From the NCBI RefSeq assembly GCF_013113715.1, contig NZ_CP053344.1:2604001-2668000 (forward strand): a stretch of DNA of 64,000 nucleotides. Reading direction: 5' to 3'. The notes below the pieces were generated by a model. The model ran no database searches. It saw only the letters and a program-made list of their open reading frames with translations, and was not told the origin of the DNA. Numbering within the stretch: position 1 is the first letter of the stretch; each line of letters begins with the position of its first letter. This DNA is from Herbiconiux sp. SALV-R1 (GTDB taxonomy: Bacteria; Actinomycetota; Actinomycetes; Actinomycetales; Microbacteriaceae). A program made the translations under genes and the position numbers. Shown in pieces: positions 5,373 to 56,659 of the stretch.

Positions 5373-8273
<2,901 letters not shown>

Positions 8274-38096: not shown

Positions 38097-39305
38097 CTAC
38101 CCGCTGAACGGGTTGGCGCAGGTCTGCTCGGCGGCGGTCTGGCCCTTGAGGCCCTCGATGACGTCGGGCGAGCTGCTAGCGGGAGGCGCGGCCGGGGCGG
38201 CGGGGCTCGCCGGGTCGGCGGTGTCTCCGACAGTCGAGCTCGAGGTGATCGCGCCCGCGTCGAGGGCGATCGCTTGGTCGGAAGCGATCCGCTCCACCAG
38301 TTGCGCCGCCAGTTCCTCGTTCGGCTGCACGCGATTTGGATCATCGACCCACGCGGTGACCGGATAGGAGACGAACACCACCCTCGACAGGTCGATGTCT
38401 TTCAGCGCCAGCGCGAGGGAGATGAGGGTGTCGGCGCCCCTGAGGCTGGTCGAAGGGGTGATGTTCTGAGCGACGGCCTGAGCGAGTCCGTAGACCTTGA
38501 CGGGATCGCTCAGGGTGCTCGTGCTCTTGATGGTCCGCAGCAGCGAAGCGAGGTACTGCTGCTGCGAGCCGATGCGGGTGAGGTCGCTGCCGTCGCCCAC
38601 GCCATGCCTGGTGCGCAGGAAGGCGAGCGCATCCCGACCGACCAGCACGTGATGTCCCGGCTCCAGGTACAGCCCGGTGTAGTCGTCCTGGGTCACGTCC
38701 GTGACGCAGACGTCAACACCGCCGACGGCGTTGCTCATGGCGATCACGCCGTTGAACGACGTCTCCATCGCGTACGGGATGTCGAGACCGGTCAGAGACC
38801 GCACCGCAGCGACGACGCACCCCAGCCCGTTCTCGCCTCCCCGCGCCCAGGCCGCATTGAGCGGTTGCGCCTCCACCGCATCCGATGCGTCACATTCCGG
38901 CTGAGGCATCATCATGTCGCGCGGCAAGCTGACCACCACGGCATTGCGATGGTCGGCCGCGACGTGCACGAGGATGTTCACGTCGTTCAGCACCGCATCG
39001 CGCTCGCCATACTCGTCGCCCTGGTCCTCGTCGTTGTCGCTGCCGACGATGAGCAGATTGAAGCCGCCTTCGATGGCCCCGAGGAACGGCGGAGGGGGCG
39101 GCGGACTCTCCCCGCCGATGTCGACGGCTGCCTCGTGGAACGTCGACGAGATGCTGGTGACGGCGTAGCCCACAACAGCGAGCGTCGATGTGATCCCTAC
39201 GGCGACGGTGATGCCGATGAACCTGAAGACGAGACCCCGAGCGGTGGGGGTGCGTTGCCGTCCGTGCCGAACGGGGGAATGCACCCGACCCTTTCGCGAC
39301 CTCAT
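38097..39305 (-). CDS. LytR-CpsA-Psr (LCP) family ligase, paralogue 1
   Basis: A 402-residue protein with a cytoplasmic basic N-terminus, one membrane helix (about 28-50) and an extracellular LCP domain. LCP hallmarks: DVNILVHVAADHRNAVVVSLPRD, LNAAWARGGENGLG, NGVIAMSNAVGGVDV and FLRTRHGVGDGSDLTRIGSQQQYLASLL, including the conserved Arg and Asp that handle the pyrophosphate lipid. LCP enzymes transfer lipid-linked glycans to peptidoglycan. A PPPPPP run precedes FLGAIEGG. Codon choice is less GC-rich at third positions than in the neighbouring paralogue. TAAGCT ends 7 nt before the ATG and overlaps a GCTTA-TAAGC inverted repeat (39314-39329). Confidence 0.9.
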   Translation of the reverse strand: MRSRKGRVHSPVRHGRQRTPTARGLVFRFIGITVAVGITSTLAVVGYAVTSISSTFHEAAVDIGGESPPPPPPFLGAIEGGFNLLIVGSDNDEDQGDEYGERDAVLNDVNILVHVAADHRNAVVVSLPRDMMMPQPECDASDAVEAQPLNAAWARGGENGLGCVVAAVRSLTGLDIPYAMETSFNGVIAMSNAVGGVDVCVTDVTQDDYTGLYLEPGHHVLVGRDALAFLRTRHGVGDGSDLTRIGSQQQYLASLLRTIKSTSTLSDPVKVYGLAQAVAQNITPSTSLRGADTLISLALALKDIDLSRVVFVSYPVTAWVDDPNRVQPNEELAAQLVERIASDQAIALDAGAITSSSTVGDTADPASPAAPAAPPASSSPDVIEGLKGQTAAEQTCANPFSG

Positions 39306-39312
39306 GCGCGCA

Positions 39313-39318
39313 AGCTTA
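39313..39318 (-). promoter_or_regulatory. -10 box of LCP paralogue 1
   Basis: TAAGCT on the minus strand, 7 nt before the ATG at 39305, inside the inverted repeat GCTTA-ggtcga-TAAGC. Confidence 0.55.
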
Positions 39319-39368
39319 GGTCGATAAGCTGAGCATTCCCCACTTATCGTGGATGGCGTCCGCCGGGG

Positions 39369-40607
39369 CTACTCGCTGAAGGGGTTGGCGCAGGTCTGCT
39401 CGGCGGCGGTCTGGCCCTTGAGGCCCTCGATGACGTCGGGGGTGTCGGGCGAGTCGGTGGGGGCGTCGCTCGCGGGAGGGGCCGCGGGCGTCGCGGGGGC
39501 GGCGGGGTCGGCCGTGGCGTCGCCCTCGAGGGTGGAGCCGGTGGTGGTGGAGTCGGCGTCGAGGGTGAAGGGCTGGTCGGTGGCGAGGCGCTGCATGAGT
39601 TCGGCGGCGAGCTCGTCGACGGGCTGCACCTTGTTGGGGTCGTCGACGTAGGCGGTGACGGGGTAGGAGACGAACACCACCTTCGACAGGTCGATGTCCT
39701 TCATCGCCAGGGCGAGCGAAACGAGGGTGTCGGTGTCGCTGATGCTCGTCGACGGCGTGATGTTCTGCGCCACGGCCTGCGCCAGTCCGTACACCTTGGT
39801 GGGGTCGGAGAGCGTGCTCGAGCTCTTGATCGTGCGCAGCAGCGACGACAGGTACTGCTGCTGCGACCCGATGCGCGCGAGGTCGCTGCCGTCGCCCACG
39901 CCGTGCCTGTTGCGCAGGAACCCGAGCGCATCGGCACCCGCGAGCAGGTGGTGCCCCGGGGTGAGGTAGAGCCCCGTGTAGTCATCGTGCATCACGTCGG
40001 TGACGCAGACATCCACGCCGCCGACCGCGTTGCTCATCTCGATCACGCCGTTGAACGAGGTCTCCATAGCGTACGGGATGTCGAGGCCGGTGAGCGAGCG
40101 CACCGTCGCCACGACGCACCCGAGGCCGTTCGCGCCGCCCCTGCCCCAGGCCGCGTTGAGGGGCTGGGCGGAGACCGCATCCGAATCGTCGCACTCCGGC
40201 TGCGGGATGACGAGGTCGCGCGGCAGGCTGAGAACCACGGCGTTGCGGTGGTCGGCGGCGACGTGCACCAGGATGTTCACGTCGTTCAGGGCGGCGTCGC
40301 GCTCGCCGTACTCGTCGCCCTGGTTTTCGTCGTTGTCGCTGCCGACGATGAGCAGGTTGAAGCCGCCCTCGATGGCTCCGAGGAACGGCGGTGCGGGCTG
40401 CGGTGCGTCTCCCCCGATGTCGACGGCCGCCTCCTGGAAGGTCGACGAGATGCTCGAGACGGCGTAGCCCACCACCACCAGCGTCGACACCACCACGACC
40501 GCCACCGCGATGCCGAGCGTGCGCAGCACCAGCGCCACGGGTGATGCCGCGCTGAGCCTGCCGTGTCGGACGGGGGCTTCGTGGGAGTTCTGGTCGTCGC
40601 GATGCAT
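39369..40607 (-). CDS. LytR-CpsA-Psr (LCP) family ligase, paralogue 2
   Basis: A 412-residue close relative of the downstream LCP gene: the same membrane anchor, LCP motifs (NILVHVAADHRNAVVLSLPR, LNAAWGRGGANGLG, FLRNRHGVGDGSDLARIG) and a nearly identical C-terminus DVIEGLKGQTAAEQTCANPF. The linker before that tail differs (longer Ala/Pro/Asp stretch). The 3' ends match for about 70 bases. TAGTTT ends 7 nt before the ATG at 40607, so both copies appear to have their own promoter. It probably attaches the glycan made by this locus to peptidoglycan. Confidence 0.92.
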   Translation of the reverse strand: MHRDDQNSHEAPVRHGRLSAASPVALVLRTLGIAVAVVVVSTLVVVGYAVSSISSTFQEAAVDIGGDAPQPAPPFLGAIEGGFNLLIVGSDNDENQGDEYGERDAALNDVNILVHVAADHRNAVVLSLPRDLVIPQPECDDSDAVSAQPLNAAWGRGGANGLGCVVATVRSLTGLDIPYAMETSFNGVIEMSNAVGGVDVCVTDVMHDDYTGLYLTPGHHLLAGADALGFLRNRHGVGDGSDLARIGSQQQYLSSLLRTIKSSSTLSDPTKVYGLAQAVAQNITPSTSISDTDTLVSLALAMKDIDLSKVVFVSYPVTAYVDDPNKVQPVDELAAELMQRLATDQPFTLDADSTTTGSTLEGDATADPAAPATPAAPPASDAPTDSPDTPDVIEGLKGQTAAEQTCANPFSE

Positions 40608-46689: not shown

Positions 46690-47763
46690 CTACCGCCCGG
46701 TCTGCTCCGCGATCCAGCTCTGCAGCCCCGCGACACCGCGGTCGACGGGCCAGCGGGGCTCCCAGTCGAGCATGCGCAGGGTGTCGTCGATGGTGCACTC
46801 GGCGTGGCGCACGTCGCCGTCGCGGTACTTGCCCGTGATGTGGGGCGCCGGCGCCTGGTGGTAGGCGGCGATGGCCTCGGCCAGCTGCATGATGGTGGTG
46901 CCGACTCCCGAGCCGACGTCTCCGACGATGGAGGCCTCCTCGGCCGGCAGCGCGAGCGCGGCGACGAAGGCGTCGGCGACGTCGTCGATGTAGACGAAGT
47001 CGCGGGTGATGAGGCCGTCTTCGTAGATCGGGATGCTCTCACCGCGCTGGGCGAGCTGCGAGAACAGCGACACGATGCCGGTGTAGGGGTTCGACAGCGA
47101 CTGGCCGGGGCCGTAGACGTTCTGCAGGCGCAGGGTGGTGAGCGTGGTGTCGCGGGCGTTCACCCAGGCCGAGAGCACGTGCTCCTGCGCGAGCTTGGTG
47201 GAGCCGTAGACGCTGGTGGGCGCCGGCACGGTGACGGCGGCGCGGGAGGCGAGGGGCTTCGCGTCGGGGAAGTCCCACTGCGCCGCCTCGAACTGGGCGT
47301 GCGAGCGCTGGCCCGGGTAGTAGACCTCGCCGCTGCTCTTCTCCCAGGCGCCCTCGCCGTAGACGGCGCGGCTCGACGACAGCAGGAAGCGCTCGGGCAC
47401 GATGCCCCGGGCGCTCAGCGCGTCGAGCATGACGGTGGTGCCGACGACGTTCACGTGCGCGTGCCGGGTGGCTTCGTTGAGCGACTGCGCGGTGCCGGTC
47501 TCGGCAGCCAGGTGGATGACGACGGTGGGCTCGATCTCGGCCAGCACGGTCTCCCAGACGGCCGGGTCGGTGACGTCGCCGACGATGAGCTCCGCCGCCT
47601 CGACGAGCGCGGCGGGGCGCTCCTGCACCTGGTGCACCTGGGGGTGGAGGGAGTCGACCACGACCCACTTCTCCGCCTTCCCGGCGAGCCGCTCGGCGAG
47701 GGCGCAGCCGATGAAGCCGGCACCTCCGGTGACGATGACGCGCTGGCGGGAGAGATCAGTCAT
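46690..47763 (-). CDS. NAD-dependent nucleotide-sugar epimerase/dehydratase
   Basis: A 357-residue extended short-chain dehydrogenase. The NAD-binding loop is VIVTGGAGFIGCALAERLAG, VIHLAAETGTAQSL is the family substrate-side loop, the catalytic Ser sits in LLSSSRAVYGEG, and SVYGSTKLAQEHVL holds a YxxxK. It lies amid polysaccharide genes, so it most likely makes an activated sugar for them (UDP-glucose 4-epimerase or dTDP/GDP-sugar types are possible). The ATG at 47763 has AAGGA upstream. Which epimerase cannot be read reliably. Confidence 0.86.
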   Translation of the reverse strand: MTDLSRQRVIVTGGAGFIGCALAERLAGKAEKWVVVDSLHPQVHQVQERPAALVEAAELIVGDVTDPAVWETVLAEIEPTVVIHLAAETGTAQSLNEATRHAHVNVVGTTVMLDALSARGIVPERFLLSSSRAVYGEGAWEKSSGEVYYPGQRSHAQFEAAQWDFPDAKPLASRAAVTVPAPTSVYGSTKLAQEHVLSAWVNARDTTLTTLRLQNVYGPGQSLSNPYTGIVSLFSQLAQRGESIPIYEDGLITRDFVYIDDVADAFVAALALPAEEASIVGDVGSGVGTTIMQLAEAIAAYHQAPAPHITGKYRDGDVRHAECTIDDTLRMLDWEPRWPVDRGVAGLQSWIAEQTGR

Positions 47764-47840
47764 GGAGTGGAGTCCTTCGTTGCTTCGTGGCGAGGTCTCG
47801 ATGAGACCACCGGAACACCTTAGTACCCCGGGCCTGTGAT

Positions 47841-49797
47841 CTAGACGATGACGGTGGTGCAGCCCAGCCGCGCGTCGTCGGCCGGCGCGACCTCGGGCGC
47901 CGCACCGTCGGAAGACGCCTCCTCCGACGACGGCGACGACGCCGCCGGCGCCGCGTAGGCACACACCCGGTGCTCCCCCGGCGTCACGGGAACCGTGGCG
48001 CTGTACCCGACGGCGTCGCCCAGCCCGGGGTTGGCCTCGGCGACGTCGGCGCGGCTGAGCTCCGCGAGGGTGCTCGCGGCGTACACGTCGTCGACGTAGA
48101 ACACCACCTCGACCGGCTCGGCGCTGTCGGGGTCGGCGGCCCAGCCCTGCACGGTGACCCCCTCGGCAACGGGCTCCGCCGAGTCGAGCGCGCCGAGCGC
48201 CGCACTGCTCTTCACGGTCACCGTGAAGCAGCCGAGCTGCGGGTTGTTGTCGCTCGAGGGCACGTTCACGCCGTAGGCGCAGATGCGGTGGCTGCCCGGC
48301 GAGGCCGGAACGGTGCCGGTGAACCCGTGCTTGTCGCCGAAGCCCGGGTAGAGCGAGGCGACGTCGGGCCGGCTCTTGTCGGCCTTGAGCCGCGAGGTCC
48401 ACGCGTTGTCGACGTAGAACACGACGTCGATGGGGTCGGTGGTGTCGGGGTCGAGGGTCCAGCCCGAGACCTTGATGCCGCCGTCGACGGCGGTCGCGGT
48501 GTCGAAGGAGCCGACCGGCTTGCCTCCGTCGACCGCGAGGGTCGCGCATCCGATCTGCGGGTTGTCGTCCGACGAAGGCGTGTTCACCGCGTAGGCGCAC
48601 ACCTTGTGGGTGCCCGCCTTGACCGGCACCGTGGCCGAGAAGCCGTGCCCGCCGCCGTAGCCCGGGAAGACGTACGCCACGTCGCCGCGCACCTGGTCGG
48701 CCTTGGTGGCCGAGGTCCAGCGGTCGTCGACGTAGAACACGACCGAGATGGGGGCCGTGGTGTCGGGGTCGATGGCCCAGCCGGTGACGGCGACTCCGCC
48801 GTCGACGCTGCGGGCGGTCTCGAGGTAGCCGATGGGCTTGCCCGCCATCACGGTGACCGTGGAGCAGCCGAGAAGCGTGTTGCCGTTGCCGCCGGTGTCC
48901 ATGGCGTAGACGCAGATGGTGTTGACGCCGGGCGAAGCGGGGGCGACCACGTCGTAGCCGTGCGCGTCGCCGTAGCCCGGCAGGTAGCGCCCGACGTCGG
49001 GCCGGTTCTTGTCGGCCGTGGTGATCGACTTCAGCCACCCGTTCACGGCGATGTTGATCTGCACCGGGCCCGTCGTGTCGAGGTCGACCGCCCAGCCGCT
49101 CACCCGCACTCCACCGGGGGCGGGATCGGCGCGCTCGAAACCGCCCGTCGGCGGGCCGGCGGTCGAGGTCGTCGTGACGCAGCCGAGCGAGGAGTTGCCG
49201 TTGCCGCCCTTGAGGTCGATGGCCGTGACGCACACCTTGTTCGTGCCGATGGGCACGGCGAGCTTGGTGACCGTCCAGGCGTGGGCGCTGCCGTAGCTCG
49301 GGTACTTCTGGCCGAGGTCGGCGCGACCGATGTTCGCGTCGAAGGTGCCCGCATCCTTCCCGTTCACCGAGATCTGCACCTTGATCGAGGAGGCGGTGTC
49401 GGGGTCGAGCGCCCAGCCGCTGATCTGCAGCGAGGCGCCGGTCTGCTTGTAGTACTCGATGGCGCCGATCGGCGAGCCCGTGGGCGGTGAGACGGTGGGG
49501 CAGCCGAGCGGTTCGTTCTCGCCCGCCCCCACGTTGATGGCGTACAGGCAGTACTGCGTGGGCTTGCCCGTGGCGGGCAGGGAGATGGAGAAGCCGTGGT
49601 TCGCGCCGTTGCCGTAGACCTTGTCGACGTCGGGCCGTGAGCCGTTCGCGGTGAAGGCGCCGGCGAAGCTGCCGGTGAGGTAGTTGCCGCCCGACCAGAC
49701 GTAGACCTGGATGGGGTTCCTGGTGTCGAGGTCCTGCGCCCAGCCGCGCAGGGTCACGGTCTTGAGGTCGGCCGTGGCCCCGTCGATGGAGCCGAAC
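47841..49797 (-). repeat. Six tandem GWALDPDT modules, coding
   Basis: Six diverged ~105-codon units coding GWALDPDTxxPIxVxFYVD, RxDVAxxYPGxGxxHGF and a pair of Cys (CAYAVN and GCxTV). The first two units are most diverged. The same unit recurs five times in the gene at 51851; the DNA of units in both genes is similar enough for gene conversion. Confidence 0.85.
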
Positions 49798-50675
49798 GGG
49801 TTGTGGTTGATCTCGGTGGTGCTGCCGAACCAGTCGGTGTACAGGCGCCAGAAATTGCGGTTGCCGTAGGCCGAGCATCCGTCGCCCGTGCCGTAGAGGT
49901 TCGCGAGTGCCGCAGCGTTGGGCTGGTAGGGCGTGTAGTAGTACAGCGCCGCGGTCGCCCGGTTCTGGATGAGCACGCGGCTCGAGCCGCAGGCGGCGTT
50001 CGGGTTGTAGAGCACGTTGGCGTAGCCGCCCACCGGGTACCAGGTGAAGAAGTTGCTGGTGCCGGGCGGGTTGCCGTAGCGCTTGAACTGCCAGGCCGCC
50101 TTGTAGACCTGGTTGTAGAAACCGAAGTACTCAGAATCGCAGGGGGCCGTGTCAGGGCAGGCGAAGCCGGTGGCGCGCTCGTACTGGGTGGCGGACGGCC
50201 AGGTGTCGGTGACGAGTGACTGCTCCTTCTGCAGCAGCACGAGCAGCACGGCCTGGCTGATGCCGCACGCCTGGCCGACCTTCGCGATGATCTGCGCGGC
50301 GGTCTCGGCACCCGCCCCGCTGTAGGCGTTGCACATGGGGTCGGCGCCGCGCGAGAAGGTGTTGACGCGGTAGTCCTTGAGGCAGGTGTAGCCCGCCCGG
50401 CAGTTCGGCACCTGCCCGTTGAGGAAGTTCTGCACGGCCTGGGCGTTCATCGCCTGCCCGTTGTAGAACTTCGCGTCGGAGATGATGTTGCCGGCCTGGA
50501 AGTCGCCGCCGGTGGCGGCGGAGGCCGAGGAGGCGGTGAGCGGCACGAAGGCGGTGAGCAGCCCGCCCATCACGGCGAGGGTCGCGAGCAGGGCGACGAG
50601 GGCGCGCGGCCGTCGAGGGCGGCGCCGGAGCTCCGGTCGCCCTCGGGCCGGCACGGTGCTGCTCTGCTCGGTCAT
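47841..50675 (-). CDS. Large secreted modular protein with lysozyme-like N-terminal domain
   Basis: A 944-residue exported protein. The signal peptide (about 24-53) ends ASA before ATGG. Residues 60-285 form a Cys-rich domain with QVPNCRAGYTCLKDY, then AQIIAKVGQACGISQAVLLV, then LLQKEQSLVTDTW; Glu151 in a lysozyme/transglycosylase-like context is a candidate catalytic acid. Also seen are FGFYNQVYKAAWQFKRYGNP and ALYYYTPYQPNAAAL. Six C-terminal modules of about 105 residues follow (see repeat entry). Its start overlaps the lipoprotein gene before it (ATGA). Wall hydrolysis or binding is inferred, not shown. Confidence 0.75.
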   Translation of the reverse strand: MTEQSSTVPARGRPELRRRPRRPRALVALLATLAVMGGLLTAFVPLTASSASAATGGDFQAGNIISDAKFYNGQAMNAQAVQNFLNGQVPNCRAGYTCLKDYRVNTFSRGADPMCNAYSGAGAETAAQIIAKVGQACGISQAVLLVLLQKEQSLVTDTWPSATQYERATGFACPDTAPCDSEYFGFYNQVYKAAWQFKRYGNPPGTSNFFTWYPVGGYANVLYNPNAACGSSRVLIQNRATAALYYYTPYQPNAAALANLYGTGDGCSAYGNRNFWRLYTDWFGSTTEINHNPFGSIDGATADLKTVTLRGWAQDLDTRNPIQVYVWSGGNYLTGSFAGAFTANGSRPDVDKVYGNGANHGFSISLPATGKPTQYCLYAINVGAGENEPLGCPTVSPPTGSPIGAIEYYKQTGASLQISGWALDPDTASSIKVQISVNGKDAGTFDANIGRADLGQKYPSYGSAHAWTVTKLAVPIGTNKVCVTAIDLKGGNGNSSLGCVTTTSTAGPPTGGFERADPAPGGVRVSGWAVDLDTTGPVQINIAVNGWLKSITTADKNRPDVGRYLPGYGDAHGYDVVAPASPGVNTICVYAMDTGGNGNTLLGCSTVTVMAGKPIGYLETARSVDGGVAVTGWAIDPDTTAPISVVFYVDDRWTSATKADQVRGDVAYVFPGYGGGHGFSATVPVKAGTHKVCAYAVNTPSSDDNPQIGCATLAVDGGKPVGSFDTATAVDGGIKVSGWTLDPDTTDPIDVVFYVDNAWTSRLKADKSRPDVASLYPGFGDKHGFTGTVPASPGSHRICAYGVNVPSSDNNPQLGCFTVTVKSSAALGALDSAEPVAEGVTVQGWAADPDSAEPVEVVFYVDDVYAASTLAELSRADVAEANPGLGDAVGYSATVPVTPGEHRVCAYAAPAASSPSSEEASSDGAAPEVAPADDARLGCTTVIV

Positions 50676-51214
50676 GAGACGACGACCTCTCCGCTCGCGC
50701 TGCCCTGCGCCGTGCCGTCATCGAACACGACGGTCACCGTCCAGCTGCCGCTCGCCCCCGCCGGGAGCGTCGCGATCATCTCGGCGCAGTAGGTGACGGT
50801 GGCGTCAGCGGTGCTGGTGACCTGCGCCGATGCGCTCTGGTCGCCCTGAACCACGCTGAGCGCACAGCTGCCCGAGCTCGAGATGACGTTGCTCACCAGC
50901 GCGTCGACCCGCACCGTGCCCGCGGCGGGGTCGTAGGAGGAGTTGAGGATCTGCACGCTCGCCTCGGTGGCCGGCGGCTCCTCGGGCGGGGTGGTCGGCT
51001 TCGAGGGCGGCTCGGTGTAGGTCGGCGACGGCACGGGGCCCTCCGTGGCGGTGGGCGTCGGGCTCGGGGTCGACGACGCGGTCGGGGTGGGGGTCGCGGA
51101 TGCGGTGGTGGCGCCGGGCGTCGGCGTCGCGCCGGAGTCGACGCACCCGGTCAGCAGCACGGCCACCAGGCCGCCCGTGATCGCAGCGGCACTCACCCAT
51201 CGTCGCGTCCCCAT
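50672..51214 (-). CDS. Thr/Pro-rich lipoprotein A
   Basis: A 180-residue lipoprotein. The signal peptide ends in lipobox LTGC at about residue 24. A Thr/Pro/Ser linker of about 60 residues follows. The C-terminal domain (about 90-180) has a Cys pair: GSCALSVVQG and VTYCAEMIATL, with Ig-like beta-strand spacing and a final WTVTVVFDDG. The start chosen is ATG at 51214; upstream in-frame codons precede the signal peptide. It overlaps the next gene's start by 4 bases, so it is coupled to the modular protein. Confidence 0.72.
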   Translation of the reverse strand: MGTRRWVSAAAITGGLVAVLLTGCVDSGATPTPGATTASATPTPTASSTPSPTPTATEGPVPSPTYTEPPSKPTTPPEEPPATEASVQILNSSYDPAAGTVRVDALVSNVISSSGSCALSVVQGDQSASAQVTSTADATVTYCAEMIATLPAGASGSWTVTVVFDDGTAQGSASGEVVVS

Positions 51215-51293
51215 CGCTCCACCGTAACCGAGCGGCGCCGGAGCAGCGGGGAGCCCACACCGGCCGTCGGGCAACCGGATGCGCGTTCGCGGC

Positions 51294-51824
51294 CTATTCG
51301 GTGGTGAGTGAGACCCCGACCTCGGCGCACACCGACACCAGCGCGAGGTAGGAGTCGAGGTAGGCGTTGATCTCGTCGGCCGACGACTCGGCTCCCGGGT
51401 AGCTCGTCGCCGCGAAGTTCGCGAACGCGGCGGCGGCGCCCTCCCACTGCGCGTCGTTCGCGGCGGCCTCGGCCGCCTGCGCGGCGGCCTGGTCGCGCGC
51501 GGCGAGCCAGGCGTCGCGGCCGGCGTCGTAGTTCGCGTTGAGGGTCTCGCACGCGGCGACGACGGGGCCGCTGGTGTCGACGGGCTCGGGGGTCGGGGTG
51601 GGAGTGGGGGTCGGCACGGGCGTGGGGGTCGGCGTCGGCGTGGGGCTCGGGGTGGGGGTCGCCGTGCGGGTGGGCGACGGCTTCGTGGGGCTGGGCGTCG
51701 ACGGGTCGCCGCCCGGGTCGACGCAGCCCGAGAGCCCGACGGTGAGGGCGAGGGCTGCGGCCGCGAGGCCCCACCTGGTGGCGCGGCGGGCCGGGGTCGC
51801 CGTGGTGCGCATCCGGTTCGTCAT
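51294..51824 (-). CDS. Thr/Pro-rich lipoprotein B
   Basis: A 176-residue lipoprotein: signal peptide with lipobox LSGC, a TPTPSPTPTP-type linker (about residues 40-80), then an Ala-rich helical domain (about 88-176) with two Cys (VAACETLNANYD and LVSVCAEVGV) and WLAARDQAAAQAAEAAANDA, resembling a small helical bundle. The ATG at 51824 has GAGGAGAA upstream. It lies between lipoprotein A and the second modular protein, all on the minus strand. Function unknown. Confidence 0.7.
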   Translation of the reverse strand: MTNRMRTTATPARRATRWGLAAAALALTVGLSGCVDPGGDPSTPSPTKPSPTRTATPTPSPTPTPTPTPVPTPTPTPTPEPVDTSGPVVAACETLNANYDAGRDAWLAARDQAAAQAAEAAANDAQWEGAAAAFANFAATSYPGAESSADEINAYLDSYLALVSVCAEVGVSLTTE

Positions 51825-51850
51825 GATGGTTCTCCTCATTCGGTCGCGGC

Positions 51851-53440
51851 TCAGGGCACGGTGACCGTGGCGCAGCCGAGCTGCGGGTTGTCGTTCGACG
51901 CGGGCGTGTTCACCCCGTAGGCGCAGACCTTGTGGCTGCCCTTGGTGGCCGGCACCGTGGCCGAGTAGCCGTGCTTGTCGCCGAAGGCCGGGAACTGGGC
52001 CGCCACGTCGTTGCGGCTCTGGTCGGCCTTCGCGCTGCTCGTCCACCTGTCGTCGACGTAGAAGACGACGCTGATGGGGTCTTTTGTGTCGGGGTCGATC
52101 GTCCAGCCGTTCACCTGGATGCCGCCGGTCACGCCCTTCGCCGAGTCGAGGGCGCCGAAGGGTGCGGTCGAGGCGATGGTGACGGTCGAGCAGCCGAGCA
52201 GCGTGTTGTCGTTCGACGAGGGCCAGTTCACGCCGTAGGCGCAGACGGTGCGGCTGCCCGCCTTGGCCGGCACGGATGCGGTGAAGCCGTGCTTGTCGCC
52301 GTAGCCCGGGTAGGCGGCGGCGACATCGCCGCGGCTGCCGTCGGCGCGTGCCGACGAGGTCCACACCCCGTCGACGTAGAACACCACGTCGATCGGGTTC
52401 GCGGTGTCGGGGTCGAGCGACCAGCCCCGCACCGAGATCGACTCGCGGGCGGCCGAGGCGCCGTCGAGCTTGCCGACCGGCGCCTGGTTCGGCACCGTGA
52501 CCGTGTGGCAGCCGATGAGCGGGTTGTCGTTCGACGACGGCGTGTTCACCGCGTAGCCGCAGATGCGGTGCGAGCCCGGTATGGCGGGCACCGTCGCCGT
52601 GAAGGCGTGGTTCGGCCCCCAGGAGGGGTAGAGCCGCGCGATGTCGGAGCGGGCACCGGAGGCGCGGGTGGCCGAGGTCCACACGTTGTCGACGTAGAAC
52701 ACCACGTCGATGGGGCCCTTGGTGTCGGGGTCGAGCGCCCAGCCGGAGACCTGGATGCCACGGGGCACACCGGATGCCGTGTCGAGCGAGCCGACGGGCT
52801 GGCCGGGGGGCATGTTGATGGTGTGGCACCCGATGAGCGGGTTGTCGTTCGAGGCGGGCGTGTTCACCGCGTAGGCGCAGACCTGGTTGGTGCCGGGGGT
52901 CACCGGCACGGTCGCCGAGAAGGCGTGGGCCGCACCGTAGCCCGGGAAGACCTGCCCCACGTCGGTGCGGCTCTTGTCGGCGCGGGTGGCCGAGGTCCAG
53001 CGGTTGTTCACGTAGAACACGACGTCGATGGGGTCGGTGGTGTCGGGGTCGATCGCCCAGCCGGTGACGTTGATGCCGGCCTCGCCGCGATAGGCGGTGT
53101 CGAAGGAGCCGACCGGCTTGCCCTTCATCATGGTGAGCGTCGAGCAGCCGAGGCGGGTGTCGCCGTCTCCCCCGGTGTCCATCGCGTGCACGCACACCTT
53201 GTGCGAGCCGACGGTGGTGGGCACGAGGATGCCGTAGCCGTGCGCCGCGCCGTAGCCGGGGAGGTAGGAGGCGACGTCGGGCCGGTTCAGGTTGGCGGTG
53301 GTGATCGCCTTCAGCTGACCGTCGATGACGATGTTGATCTGCACCGGGCCGGTGCTGTCGAGGTCGACCGCCCAGCCGCTGAACCAGAGACCCCCGGGTC
53401 GCGCCTCGGCGCGCTCGTAGCCGCCGATGGGCGGGCCGTT
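51851..53440 (-). repeat. Five tandem GWALDPDT modules, coding
   Basis: Five ~315-bp units coding PVGSxDTA, GWALDPDTxDPIDVVFYVD, RxDVAxxYPGYGxxHxF and a Cys pair (VCAYAVNTPSSNDNPLIGC). The spacing is regular at about 103-106 residues. Confidence 0.87.
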
Positions 53441-54370
53441 CGTCTCGGAGACCCTGAGGTCGCCCGGAGCCTGGCCGATGTCGATGTGCTGGTGGTTGCA
53501 GCTGTCGCTGAACTCGTTGGTGAGGTAGCTGTAGCCGAGCGACGCCATGGAGGGTCTGCCGTAGCAGCCGAGCTGGCCGACATGGGTGTTGGCGGGCATG
53601 AACTGGTTGAGCAGCGACAACAGGTCGTTGGTGCCGTCGTTCCAGCCGTTGGTGCTGCGGCCGCCCACGCGGCTGAAGTCGACGGCGACGGCGGGGATGC
53701 GGCAGTGCCAGGGGCTCGGCGGGCGCTTCTCGCCCGTGCAGGTGTAGTCGCCGTCGTTGGCGCACCAGCGGTTGAGGTCGCTGACCCTGAGCGAGCCGAA
53801 GGCCTTGATGGTCACGACGAGCGCCTGCAGCACGCGCTTGTCGATGTCGCAGCGCGCCTCGACGGTGCCGTTCGCGATGGGGCCGATCTCGGTGTCCCAG
53901 ATCTCGTTGATGGCGCTGTCGACGGTGAACTTGCCCTGGTCGCGGGCGTTAAGGAGCCACTGGGCGGCGGCGCGGCCGGTGGCGGGCACGAAGGTGCAGG
54001 GGGCTCCGCAGCCGGGCGCGGCCTGCGCCACGATGTCGGCCGACTGCGGGTCGAGCGGCACCTCGGGCACGGCGGGGGCGTCGGTCGCGGGCTGGTCGTC
54101 AGCGGGCGCTTCGGTCGACGGCGCCTCCGGGGCGGGCGCGTCGGTCGCGGGCGCTTCGGTCGCCGGGGCGTCGGTCGCCGGCGCATCCGTCGCGGGCGCC
54201 TCCGTCGCGGGCTGGTCGTCAGCCGGCGCGTCGGTGGCGGGCGCCTCCGGTGCGGGCTCGACCGCGGCCTGGGCCGCGGAGCCACCGCTCGGCGGGGCGG
54301 CGACGAGGGGGACGACGAGGAACGCCAGCACCATCAGCACCGACCCGAGCACACGCACTACCGAAGACAA
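51851..54370 (-). CDS. Large secreted modular protein with Cys-rich N-terminal domain
   Basis: An 839-residue exported protein. Signal peptide at about 5-35; then a low-complexity region of about 75 residues made of PATDAPA/PATEAPA units; a Cys-rich domain (about 115-310) with CGAPCTFVPATGRAAAQWLL, VLQALVVTIKAFGSLRVSDL, HCRIPAVAVDFSRVGG and SCNHQHIDIGQAPG; then five ~105-residue modules like those of the gene at 47841. The AVDF and HQHID patterns recall M15-type or other wall peptidases but are not diagnostic. The start is TTG at 54370 with AAGGGG upstream; internal GTG codons are alternatives. Confidence 0.72.
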   Translation of the reverse strand: MSSVVRVLGSVLMVLAFLVVPLVAAPPSGGSAAQAAVEPAPEAPATDAPADDQPATEAPATDAPATDAPATEAPATDAPAPEAPSTEAPADDQPATDAPAVPEVPLDPQSADIVAQAAPGCGAPCTFVPATGRAAAQWLLNARDQGKFTVDSAINEIWDTEIGPIANGTVEARCDIDKRVLQALVVTIKAFGSLRVSDLNRWCANDGDYTCTGEKRPPSPWHCRIPAVAVDFSRVGGRSTNGWNDGTNDLLSLLNQFMPANTHVGQLGCYGRPSMASLGYSYLTNEFSDSCNHQHIDIGQAPGDLRVSETNGPPIGGYERAEARPGGLWFSGWAVDLDSTGPVQINIVIDGQLKAITTANLNRPDVASYLPGYGAAHGYGILVPTTVGSHKVCVHAMDTGGDGDTRLGCSTLTMMKGKPVGSFDTAYRGEAGINVTGWAIDPDTTDPIDVVFYVNNRWTSATRADKSRTDVGQVFPGYGAAHAFSATVPVTPGTNQVCAYAVNTPASNDNPLIGCHTINMPPGQPVGSLDTASGVPRGIQVSGWALDPDTKGPIDVVFYVDNVWTSATRASGARSDIARLYPSWGPNHAFTATVPAIPGSHRICGYAVNTPSSNDNPLIGCHTVTVPNQAPVGKLDGASAARESISVRGWSLDPDTANPIDVVFYVDGVWTSSARADGSRGDVAAAYPGYGDKHGFTASVPAKAGSRTVCAYGVNWPSSNDNTLLGCSTVTIASTAPFGALDSAKGVTGGIQVNGWTIDPDTKDPISVVFYVDDRWTSSAKADQSRNDVAAQFPAFGDKHGYSATVPATKGSHKVCAYGVNTPASNDNPQLGCATVTVP

Positions 54371-54451: not shown

Positions 54452-56659
54452 TCAGCGCGCGAACGACTCGATCGCCGCGGTGAGGTCGCGACCGAGGTGC
54501 GGGGCGATGCTGCGGGCGTAGGTGTTGCTCATGTGATTGTTGTCGGCGTAGGTGACGACCCCGCCCACGTAGGTCATGCAGGTCTCGTCGGTGCAGAAGT
54601 ACTGGCTCGTGTCGACCAGCGGGATGTCGCCGTTCTGCGCCAGCGCCTGCAGCACCGTGTCGTCGACGATGGCCTTGTCGCGCGGGTTCGAGCACGGCGC
54701 CACCGCCGGCACGGTGATGCCGGCGAGGCAGGTCGGCACGTCGCCCACCCCGACGCCGGGCACGTCGCGCACGAAGATCACGTCTTTGCCGCTGGCCTGC
54801 ACCGCCGACCAGTTGGCGTCGATCTCGTCGCGGAAGGCCTGCAGCTGCGCCGGGTCTTCCGAGGTGAAGTACGCCCGCGACCAGTCGGTGTACGCCACCA
54901 CGTCGATGTCGTCGCGCGACTCGATGTCGGCGAGCACGTCTTTCGTCCAGTCGGTGCAGGCGATCTGCTCCGCCGCATCCTTCCCCACCATCTGCTCGGG
55001 CACCGTGGTGAGCCCGGGGCAGCCGAAGCGGGTGTACGTGACGACGCGCCAGCCCTGGGTCTTGAAGTACTCGTCGAAGGAGGGGGTCATGGCCGCGGCG
55101 TGCGAGTCGCCCACGATGGCGATGGTGCCGTTGGTGCCCTTCGGGTCGCCGTAGGTGCAGTTGCGCCAGACGTTGTCGAGCTGCACCAGGCACCAGTTCG
55201 GGTCGAGGTCTTGCGAGGCGTAGGCGGTGTCGATGGGCTCGGTGGCCGTGAACACGTCGGCGCAGGCGGCCTGGTCGAGGATGCCGTTGGCGCCGTAGCA
55301 GGGCTGCTCGAGCTGGGTGGTGGCCTGGTTCGCCGCCTCGTCGATCGAGCGCTGGATGAAGGTCATGTTCGCCGCGATCACCGCCACGATGAGGGCGGGC
55401 ACGCCGAGGGCGAAGGCGTAGGAGCGGATGCGCTTGGCCGCCCACCAGCGGTTGTAGCGCGCCGGGTCTTCGACGAAGCGGCTCGACAGCGCGCCCATCA
55501 CGATGGAGAGGAGACCGAGGGCGATGCCCGCCTTGATGCCGATGCCCACCCCGAAGATGAGCGGGAAGAAGACGATGATCGGCCAGTGCCAGAGGTAGAT
55601 GGAGTACGACCACTTGCCGATGCTCTTCACCGGCCAGAACGCGCTCACGGTGCGCAGGCCGAAGCGCTCCGCCGCGGGCGGGTCGACGAGCAGCACGAGC
55701 AGCGCGCCCACGACCGGGATGGCGGCGACGATGCCTGGGAAGGGCAGGCCGCCCGAGAAGGTGTAGGCGGAGACGGCGATGAGCGCGACGCCCACCCACG
55801 GCACGACGGCGCTGATGACGCGCATGCCCCGCGAGCTGCGGTCGAGCTTGCGGCGGTCGGCAAGCCACATCACGGCCACCGAGGCGAGGCCGCCGGCCGC
55901 GAACTCCCACGCACGGACGAAGGTGTTGAAGTACGCGGCGCCGGGGCGGGTGGCGGTGAGGTAGATCGAGTAGATCAGCGAGGCGGCGAAGACGAGCACG
56001 AGCACACCCACCACGAAGGGCCGCAGGCTCTTCCAGGAGTCGGCGTCGATGCGGCGGCGCAGCACCCAGCCGGCCACGAGCACCGTGCCCATGAGCAGCA
56101 GCGGCCAGAGCACGTAGAACTGCTCCTCGACGGCGAGCGACCAGTACTGCTGCACCACGGAGTCGGCGTTGTTCTGCGCCAGATAGTCGACGGCGTTGTT
56201 CGCGAGCACCCAGTTGATGGCGTAGAGGGCGCTCGCACCGATGTTGGTGAGTTCGTCGACACGGTTGCTGAGAGGTACCCAGATGAGCGTGGCCACGAGC
56301 GTGACGGCGAGCACGAGCAGCGACGCGGGGAGGAGCCGACGGATGCGCCTGGCCCAGAACGAACCGATGGCCACCTTTCCGGTGCGGCGGAGCTCGCCGA
56401 GGAGGTGCCCCGAGATGAGGAAGCCCGAGATGACGAAGAACACGTCGACGCCGATGAACCCGCCGGGGAGCACGCCCGGCCACAGGTGGTAGATGACGAC
56501 GACGCCCACGGAGAGGGCGCGCAGGCCCTGGATCTCGGGGCGGAACTCCCGGAGCGCCGCCGACCCCGACGAGCGACGCGAGGCCCGCGTGGCCACCGGA
56601 GCCGTGCCCGCTGCCGCGCCTGCGGCCGCGGCAGGCGCCGGGTGCTCTGAACTGGCCAC
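54452..56659 (-). CDS. OafA-type acyltransferase with SGNH domain
   Basis: A 735-residue protein. The N-terminal acyltransferase-3 region (about 35-400, about ten helices) has EIQGLRALSVGVVVIYHLWP, FIGVDVFFVISGFLISGHLL and RRIRRLLPASLLVLAVTL; the conserved His is in VVIYHLWP. After helix 11 the extracytoplasmic SGNH domain carries AIVGDSHAAAMTPSF (catalytic Ser/Asp-His) at about 515 and a C-terminal TYVGGVVTYADNNHMS. It most likely O-acetylates a surface glycan. An Ala-rich N-terminus precedes the first helix. The ATG at 56659 has AGGAGTGAACG upstream. Confidence 0.9.
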   Translation of the reverse strand: MASSEHPAPAAAAGAAAGTAPVATRASRRSSGSAALREFRPEIQGLRALSVGVVVIYHLWPGVLPGGFIGVDVFFVISGFLISGHLLGELRRTGKVAIGSFWARRIRRLLPASLLVLAVTLVATLIWVPLSNRVDELTNIGASALYAINWVLANNAVDYLAQNNADSVVQQYWSLAVEEQFYVLWPLLLMGTVLVAGWVLRRRIDADSWKSLRPFVVGVLVLVFAASLIYSIYLTATRPGAAYFNTFVRAWEFAAGGLASVAVMWLADRRKLDRSSRGMRVISAVVPWVGVALIAVSAYTFSGGLPFPGIVAAIPVVGALLVLLVDPPAAERFGLRTVSAFWPVKSIGKWSYSIYLWHWPIIVFFPLIFGVGIGIKAGIALGLLSIVMGALSSRFVEDPARYNRWWAAKRIRSYAFALGVPALIVAVIAANMTFIQRSIDEAANQATTQLEQPCYGANGILDQAACADVFTATEPIDTAYASQDLDPNWCLVQLDNVWRNCTYGDPKGTNGTIAIVGDSHAAAMTPSFDEYFKTQGWRVVTYTRFGCPGLTTVPEQMVGKDAAEQIACTDWTKDVLADIESRDDIDVVAYTDWSRAYFTSEDPAQLQAFRDEIDANWSAVQASGKDVIFVRDVPGVGVGDVPTCLAGITVPAVAPCSNPRDKAIVDDTVLQALAQNGDIPLVDTSQYFCTDETCMTYVGGVVTYADNNHMSNTYARSIAPHLGRDLTAAIESFAR

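What the first reader, a model, noticed from the sequence alone, without database searches (positions are those of the whole stretch)
47841..54370. A four-gene secreted block built on eleven copies of one ~105-residue Cys-paired module
Two large exported proteins (944 and 839 residues) carry six and five tandem modules with the pattern GWALDPDTxxPIxVxFYVD ... YPGxGxxHGF ... C ... GCxTV. Between them lie two Thr/Pro-rich lipoproteins. The N-termini differ (lysozyme-like with Glu151 versus a Cys/His-rich domain), while the module arrays are shared. The regular Cys pair, Asp-rich turn and position inside a surface-polysaccharide locus suggest a wall- or glycan-binding stalk with two different catalytic or receptor heads, plus lipoprotein partners. 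I know of no described system with this architecture.
Basis: partly seen in the sequence, partly recalled or inferred. Interest (0 to 1): 0.72.

Follow-up and report, generated by a model that had tools for sequence, protein, structure and literature searches.

The report
Wall-binding repeats on two exported enzymes
A soil actinobacterium carries two secreted proteins, probably cell-wall-cutting enzymes, tethered by the same family of uncatalogued repeats, each beside its own small lipoprotein; the repeats turn up on many actinobacterial secreted enzymes and resemble the anchor of some phage lysins.

Summary
In detail: 6 + 5 copies of a ~106-residue Cys-paired module on exported proteins A (944 aa) and D (839 aa), two lipoproteins between. 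Heads and modules have no significant Pfam or NCBIfam match. Three lines point to a wall- or surface-glycan-targeting repeat. (1) In 84 head-A homologues the slot after the head holds these modules in 31; 52 others were scanned and gave LGFP 15, CWB2 9, LysM 4 and more; the paralogue in the same genome has CWB2. (2) Elsewhere the module sits on GH25, Amidase_2, CHAP, M23, SpoIID, glucosaminidase and M15_4 hydrolases, but also on GH6, GH43, subtilases and others. (3) Its profile matches the anchor of enterococcal phage lysins (hhalign 34.2; best of 200 shuffles 17.5). Head D keeps an H/D/HxH set like LAS/M15 peptidases, head A a Lys-Glu pair; no fold was shown and no structure obtained. The 'four-gene system' is better read as two head-plus-lipoprotein cassettes, [B+A] and [D+C], each also found apart, in a wall-polysaccharide locus. 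New variant of a known kind.

The parts
47841..50675 (-). Protein A, 944 aa, exported: head A + six modules
   Evidence: no Pfam/NCBIfam match at E up to 1
49806..50675 (-). Head A with signal peptide (residues 1-290); Lys150-Glu151 and eight Cys kept in 84 of 84 homologues
49479..49805 (-). Module A1 (position-specific class shared with other genera)
49158..49478 (-). Module A2
48843..49157 (-). Module A3 (pairs with D1)
48525..48842 (-). Module A4
48207..48524 (-). Module A5
47844..48206 (-). Module A6 (with an acidic insert before the last Cys)
50672..51220 (-). Lipoprotein B, 182 aa; small Cys-paired domain, overlaps start of A by 4 nt; member of a lipoprotein family found just before head A elsewhere
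51294..51824 (-). Lipoprotein C, 176 aa; homologue after D in G014 and G716
51851..54370 (-). Protein D, 839 aa, exported: Ala/Pro/Thr-rich linker + head D + five modules
53438..54370 (-). Head D with signal and linker (residues 1-311); H222, D231, H293, H295, D297 invariant in 16 rows
53123..53437 (-). Module D1
52805..53122 (-). Module D2
52487..52804 (-). Module D3
52169..52486 (-). Module D4
51854..52168 (-). Module D5
54452..56659 (-). AT3-SGNH acyltransferase (best NCBIfam match SucT, below its cut-off), before D on the same strand
46690..47766 (-). NAD-dependent epimerase/dehydratase, after A on the same strand
38097..40607 (-). Two LytR-CpsA-Psr proteins (38097-39305 and 39369-40607)

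Best explanation
A and D are exported cell-wall enzymes (autolysin type) of a Herbiconiux species. The module array is a repeat that holds the enzyme on the wall, most likely on the wall polysaccharide made by the surrounding genes; many weak sites in tandem give avidity and reach. Head D most likely is a LAS/M15-like zinc peptidase (Zn on H222, D231, H295; H293 as base) that trims or cuts peptide stems. Head A most likely is a glycan-strand or other wall hydrolase using Glu151. Each enzyme comes with its own small membrane-tethered lipoprotein (B for A, C for D), inferred to hold or regulate it at the membrane. Shown: the sequence anatomy, domain exchange, co-occurrence and conservation. Inferred: binding, catalysis, partner role.
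For: Slot exchange: 84 head-A ORFs in 80 named loci; 31 carry modules, 1 dropped for Ns, 52 scanned: LGFP 15, CWB2 9, LysM 4, SH3_3 3, PG_binding_1 1, SLH 1 (a member may count twice). The same genome's paralogue of head A carries CWB2 (L213). Module on known wall hydrolases: GH25, Amidase_2, CHAP, M23, SpoIID, glucosaminidase, M15_4; on named plasmids a GH25 lysozyme of Curtobacterium and a CHAP protein of Miltoncostaea. Module profile vs C-terminal domain of Enterococcus/Listeria phage lysins: hhalign probability 79%, score 34.2; 200 column shuffles at most 17.5, reversed 9.6; seven other profiles at most 13.4. Head A-like domain fused to NlpC/P60 on a viral contig. Head D H/D/HxH invariant in 16 rows. 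Polysaccharide genes beside head A: 37 of 134 flanking ORFs from 67 loci match GT2 (no base-rate control).
Against: No structure and no experiment. Modules also occur on GH6, GH43, GDSL, subtilase, CAP and matrixin-like proteins, so they need not be specific to peptidoglycan. Head A vs SLT is inconclusive: 14.0, 26.4 and 23.8 with three SLT sets (14.2, 26.5, 25.2 with phage rows added), against 22.9 as best of 100 shuffles of the third set. Head D vs M15_3: 23.8 against at most 17.3 in 60 shuffles, but over 13 columns only; M15_4: 14.1 against 17.9, no match; the H-to-D spacing is longer than in the M15 motif as I recall it. Of 17 non-A/D module ORFs scanned in the first set 3 had no family, nor had the 868-aa module ORF L120:13325-15928. 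Module and head-D scans of viral contigs and a module search of phage records found no relative directly.
Confidence: 0.62

Rival explanations
1. The array is a general extracellular glycan-binding or matrix-anchoring repeat (exopolysaccharide, plant or soil glycans), and the peptidoglycan link is secondary.
For: Modules on GH6 (3), subtilase (2), CAP (2), GH43 (1) among 39 ORF parts and on a GDSL hydrolase; neighbourhood of polysaccharide genes.
Against: Wall hydrolases are the largest class of heads in the two sets scanned; exchange with LGFP, CWB2, LysM and SLH repeats; likeness to the phage-lysin anchor.
Confidence: 0.25
2. The array is only a stiff disulphide-braced spacer without ligand, lifting the head through the wall.
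For: Regular length, conserved Cys pair (C82 93% of 206, C99 94% of 199 modules), copy number from 1 to 10 per protein.
Against: 15 of 46 module ORFs in L309-L347 have a single module, too short for a stalk; conserved G-W, R-x-D and H-G-F are partly kept in the phage domain, which serves as the only C-terminal domain of a lysin.
Confidence: 0.1
3. The heads are inactive receptors or scaffolds, and the block builds a surface adhesin rather than an autolysin pair.
For: No head matches a known enzyme family by sequence.
Against: Lys-Glu of head A 84 of 84; H/D/HxH of head D 16 of 16; head A with NlpC/P60 in a viral contig.
Confidence: 0.15

Closest known systems
C-terminal anchor ('unknown CWB', UCWB) of enterococcal phage lysins such as EfAmi1
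   Same: Shared pattern G.(L/I)D ... V.GW ... R.DV ... Y ... GF; hhalign 79%, 72 columns; C-terminal to a wall hydrolase (PMC10167349 abstract and passages, PMC10630273 passages).
   Different: Single copy, no matching Cys pair or GC.TV end; the first search against the PDB sequence was not significant (E 0.12).
CWB2 (PF04122), LGFP (PF08310), LysM, SLH repeats of wall proteins
   Same: Occupy the same slot behind head A; CWB2 and a module occur together in L199.
   Different: Proteins A and D match none of these models.
LAS/M15 zinc D,D-peptidases (head D)
   Same: S-x-H ... A-V-D and H-x-H-x-D arrangement (motif recalled).
   Different: Not matched by Pfam M15 models; H-to-D spacing longer; profile match covers 13 columns.
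Lysozyme-like transglycosylases, SLT (head A)
   Same: Glu151 is aligned to the SLT Glu by hhalign.
   Different: Score near shuffles and 14 with one SLT set; eight invariant Cys; no Pfam match.

Membership tests
LAS/M15 zinc peptidase (head D) | Matches a curated M15 model | tested here: not met
   No M15 hit for D in Pfam or NCBIfam; PF08291 and PF13539 give no match in G000
LAS/M15 zinc peptidase (head D) | Zn ligands His, Asp, His and HxH motif (motif recalled) | tested here: met
   H222, D231, H293, H295 invariant in 16 rows; spacing of the first pair differs
LAS/M15 zinc peptidase (head D) | Profile relation to M15 | tested here: inconclusive
   M15_3 23.8 vs 17.3 over 13 columns; M15_4 14.1 vs 17.9
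LAS/M15 zinc peptidase (head D) | Fold and Zn binding | not tested
   structure job not accepted
Lysozyme-like / SLT (head A) | Profile relation to SLT | tested here: inconclusive
   hhalign 14.0, 26.4, 23.8 with three SLT sets; best of 100 shuffles of the third 22.9
Lysozyme-like / SLT (head A) | A conserved Glu that could be catalytic | tested here: met
   E151 84 of 84
Lysozyme-like / SLT (head A) | Fold | not tested
   job unfinished
Known wall-binding repeats (CWB2, LGFP, LysM, SLH, SH3) | Match of the module-bearing protein to the model | tested here: not met
   A none at E up to 1; D only four weak unrelated matches
Phage-lysin UCWB domain | Homology of the module by profile | tested here: met
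   34.2 vs at most 17.5; with 28 non-window rows alone 33.0
Phage-lysin UCWB domain | Same fold and ligand | not testable with these tools
   that domain was absent from the EfAmi1 crystal (PMC10167349 passages); ours not obtained
Single four-gene system | Four genes co-occur across genomes | tested here: not met
   besides the window genome, a full-length head D match only in G014 among 60 relatives; the pairs occur apart

The most novel reading that the evidence does not exclude
The GW-DPD module is a large uncatalogued wall-anchoring superfamily that links actinobacterial autolysins with Gram-positive phage lysins, and head A with its lipoprotein is a new class of wall-cutting enzyme held by a dedicated membrane partner, acting where new wall polysaccharide is attached; arrays are copied as blocks onto new heads to build new enzymes.
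Probability: 0.3. Interest if true: 0.68.

Novelty: new variant of a known kind. Interest (0 to 1): 0.52.

Why it matters
If right, one profile would give a likely role to a widespread class of unnamed extracellular repeats (61 of 199 genomes of the family sampled, window genome included), point to an uncatalogued wall enzyme found in 35 of 37 genomes of the family searched, and give 'unknown' anchors of phage lysins a set of bacterial relatives. It makes a direct test possible: does the array bind the polysaccharide made by the genes next to it?

Tried and rejected
Pfam, NCBIfam, PHROGs and PDB sequence searches of A, D, heads and modules gave no usable family. Viral-contig scans with the module and head D profiles gave no relative; phage records gave none for two modules or head A. 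Glucosaminidase (PF01832) as kin of head A: no match in the 16 genomes of the genus, 2 of 40 genomes in all and below cut-off, so no profile could be built. Idea that D arose by copying the A array as a whole: only D1+A3 is a supported pair (100); the deeper groupings of the others have support 26-37, so I claim only local exchange. Literature: no paper with the module string; listings named no description of module or head A, but I read passages of two papers only and the library lacks most subscription journals.

One search used a wrongly sliced head D query (length not a multiple of three) and found nothing; one search repeats it correctly. One search failed on a wrong key and was repeated. 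The lipoprotein scan uses a loose pattern without a chance control; it gave 17 of 75 ORFs, and L113 looks like an epimerase tail (16 of 75 without it). The phage alignment holds 7 of the 8 stretches fetched (L160, nearly the same as L159, left out).

Full report
Organism and observation. The window most likely lies in a Herbiconiux genome: G006, of the same genus as G000, has a contig of the length of H. moechotypicola NZ_JANLCN010000009 (193,244 bases). Two exported proteins, A (944 aa) and D (839 aa), carry six and five copies of a module of about 106 residues; two lipoproteins B and C lie between. Module matches in this genome occur only here. An AT3-SGNH acyltransferase, D, C, B, A and an epimerase lie on one strand with gaps of 81, 26, 73, -4 and 74 nt (from the coordinates, with the starts I chose), so they look like one transcription unit (inference).

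Neither heads nor modules are catalogued. Pfam and NCBIfam gave nothing for A at E up to 1, and for D only four weak Pfam matches (E 0.14 or more); the PDB by sequence gave nothing significant, PHROGs likewise.

Head A. It occurs in 41 of 60 relatives, window genome included, and in 35 of the 37 genomes of the family among them. Lys150, Glu151 and eight Cys are kept in 84 of 84 (its numbering is 22 lower). What follows the head varies: modules in 31; one ORF dropped for Ns; of the other 52, LGFP 15, CWB2 9, LysM 4, SH3_3 3, PG_binding_1 1, SLH 1, DUF4214 1, FG-GAP 1, TIG 1, a few odd matches, and an unstated number without a match (a member may count twice). The second head-A protein of the window's own genome carries CWB2 (L213). 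So the modules fill the slot that known wall-binding repeats fill in homologues. Distant relatives stand alone in large phage contigs, and on a 10-kb viral contig a head-A-like part is fused to NlpC/P60. Profile comparison with SLT places Glu151 on the SLT glutamate, but the scores are 14.0, 26.4 and 23.8 for three SLT sets against 22.9 for the best of 100 shuffles of the third: inconclusive.

Head D. Its 16-row alignment keeps H222, D231, H293, H295 and D297. This is the arrangement of LAS/M15 zinc peptidases as I recall it, with a longer first spacing; hhalign with M15_3 scored 23.8 against at most 17.3 in 60 shuffles, over 13 columns only, and M15_4 did not match (14.1 against 17.9). I infer a peptidase and do not file it in M15. 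Distant matches to head D lie in 44 plasmid records, most often of Clavibacter and Curtobacterium (15 rows seen, 29.7-36.0% identity).

The module elsewhere. Genomes with a match, window genome included: 24 of 60 relatives, 61 of 199 of the family, 19 of 394 of the class, 24 of 296 of the phylum (11 of these 24 have a best E above 1e-6 and are weak). In loci L193-L228, 34 module ORFs: 10 head A, 1 head D, 23 others, of which 17 were scanned: GH25 4, Amidase_2 2, SpoIID 2, M23 2 (one just under its cut-off), CHAP 1, GH18 1, GDSL 1, matrixin below cut-off 1, none 3. In L309-L347, 46 module ORFs: 6 head A, 1 head D; the other 39 gave GH25 4, CHAP 3, GH6 3, Amidase_2 2, subtilase 2, CAP 2, fn3 2, and M23, glucosaminidase, GH43, M10 and others 1 each; the call does not say how many matched nothing. 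One ORF joins two modules to M15_4. Thus wall hydrolases are the largest class in these two sets, not the only one; the loci were chosen from the best or most varied matches, not at random. Two named plasmids agree: a GH25 lysozyme in Curtobacterium and a CHAP protein in Miltoncostaea.

Relation to phage lysins. The module profile weakly hit the C-terminal part of EfAmi1 (E 0.12). I searched phage records with that part (57 records), fetched eight stretches, aligned seven and compared profiles: probability 79%, score 34.2, 72 columns. 200 column shuffles reached at most 17.5, the reversed profile 9.6, seven other profiles at most 13.4; without window rows 33.0, with the 11 window modules alone 30.9. 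PMC10167349 (abstract and passages) calls this domain of unknown structure and function and suggests carbohydrate binding from a predicted model; PMC10630273 (passages) calls such C-termini unknown cell-wall-binding domains shuffled among phage lysins. I saw no binding experiment on it in these passages.

Two cassettes, not one system. Among the loci compared, the full block with its flanks is kept in G014 only (full-length head D match only there among 60 relatives). A head D with eight modules, and a lipoprotein C homologue (61% over 89 aa) 270 nt after it, occurs in another genus, G716, with no head A in the 40 kb looked at. Lipoprotein B homologues lie just before head A in G003 and Agreia, and 3.3 kb before it in H. 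moechotypicola. A lipoprotein-like gene abuts head A in 17 of 75 ORFs (16 without L113), with modules 8 of 30 and without 9 of 45 (loose pattern). Fifteen of these, with B and that of G003, share a Cys pair in 17 of 17 rows (E-values for a database of 16 sequences). So a head plus its lipoprotein looks like the unit.

Array evolution. D1 groups with A3 (100). Module A1 belongs to a position-specific class (100 with G003, 86 with Agreia and G018 added). In G003 a trypsin-like-looking head (no Pfam match) about 12 kb from its A carries modules 1-3 that pair with modules 1-3 of its A (98, 99, 89). This suggests that arrays are copied onto new heads; the other window modules are unresolved.

Setting. 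Beside head A, 37 of 134 flanking ORFs from 67 of 80 loci match GT2, 10 epimerase, 6 DUF2142, 3 LytR-CpsA-Psr (12 loci under 14 kb and L126 left out; simple gene calls). I infer that these enzymes act on, or are held by, the wall polysaccharide made there.

Limits. No structure was obtained, no base-rate control was made for the neighbour counts or the lipoprotein scan, and the head families rest on profiles built here. Binding, catalysis and the lipoprotein role remain inferences.

Noticed in passing
L151:2-973 (viral contig IMGVR_UViG_3300046837_000409): Head A-like part fused to NlpC/P60, upstream of a terminase-like ORF (by eye): possible phage wall hydrolase.
   Followed up: partly
L153:3674-4456 and L154:1688-2308: Small stand-alone relatives of head A (260 and 206 aa) in 150-173 kb viral contigs keep LQKEQSLV and the LY.YTPW motif.
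   Followed up: partly
L214:3206-6403 (G003): Trypsin-like-looking head with four modules, the first three pairing with those of the genome's own protein A, 12 kb away.
   Followed up: partly
L308 (G048:C263): Two modules followed by a Peptidase_M15_4 domain in one ORF.
   Followed up: partly
L313:709-3165: Five modules behind a Cys-rich domain that looks like a methylamine dehydrogenase light chain (label recalled), an odd head.
   Followed up: no
window 5373-8273 (-): ORF of 966 aa that looks like SecA from its start (recalled, not searched).
   Followed up: no
L113:7545-9632: Head A ORF whose repeat array may change frame near its end.
   Followed up: no
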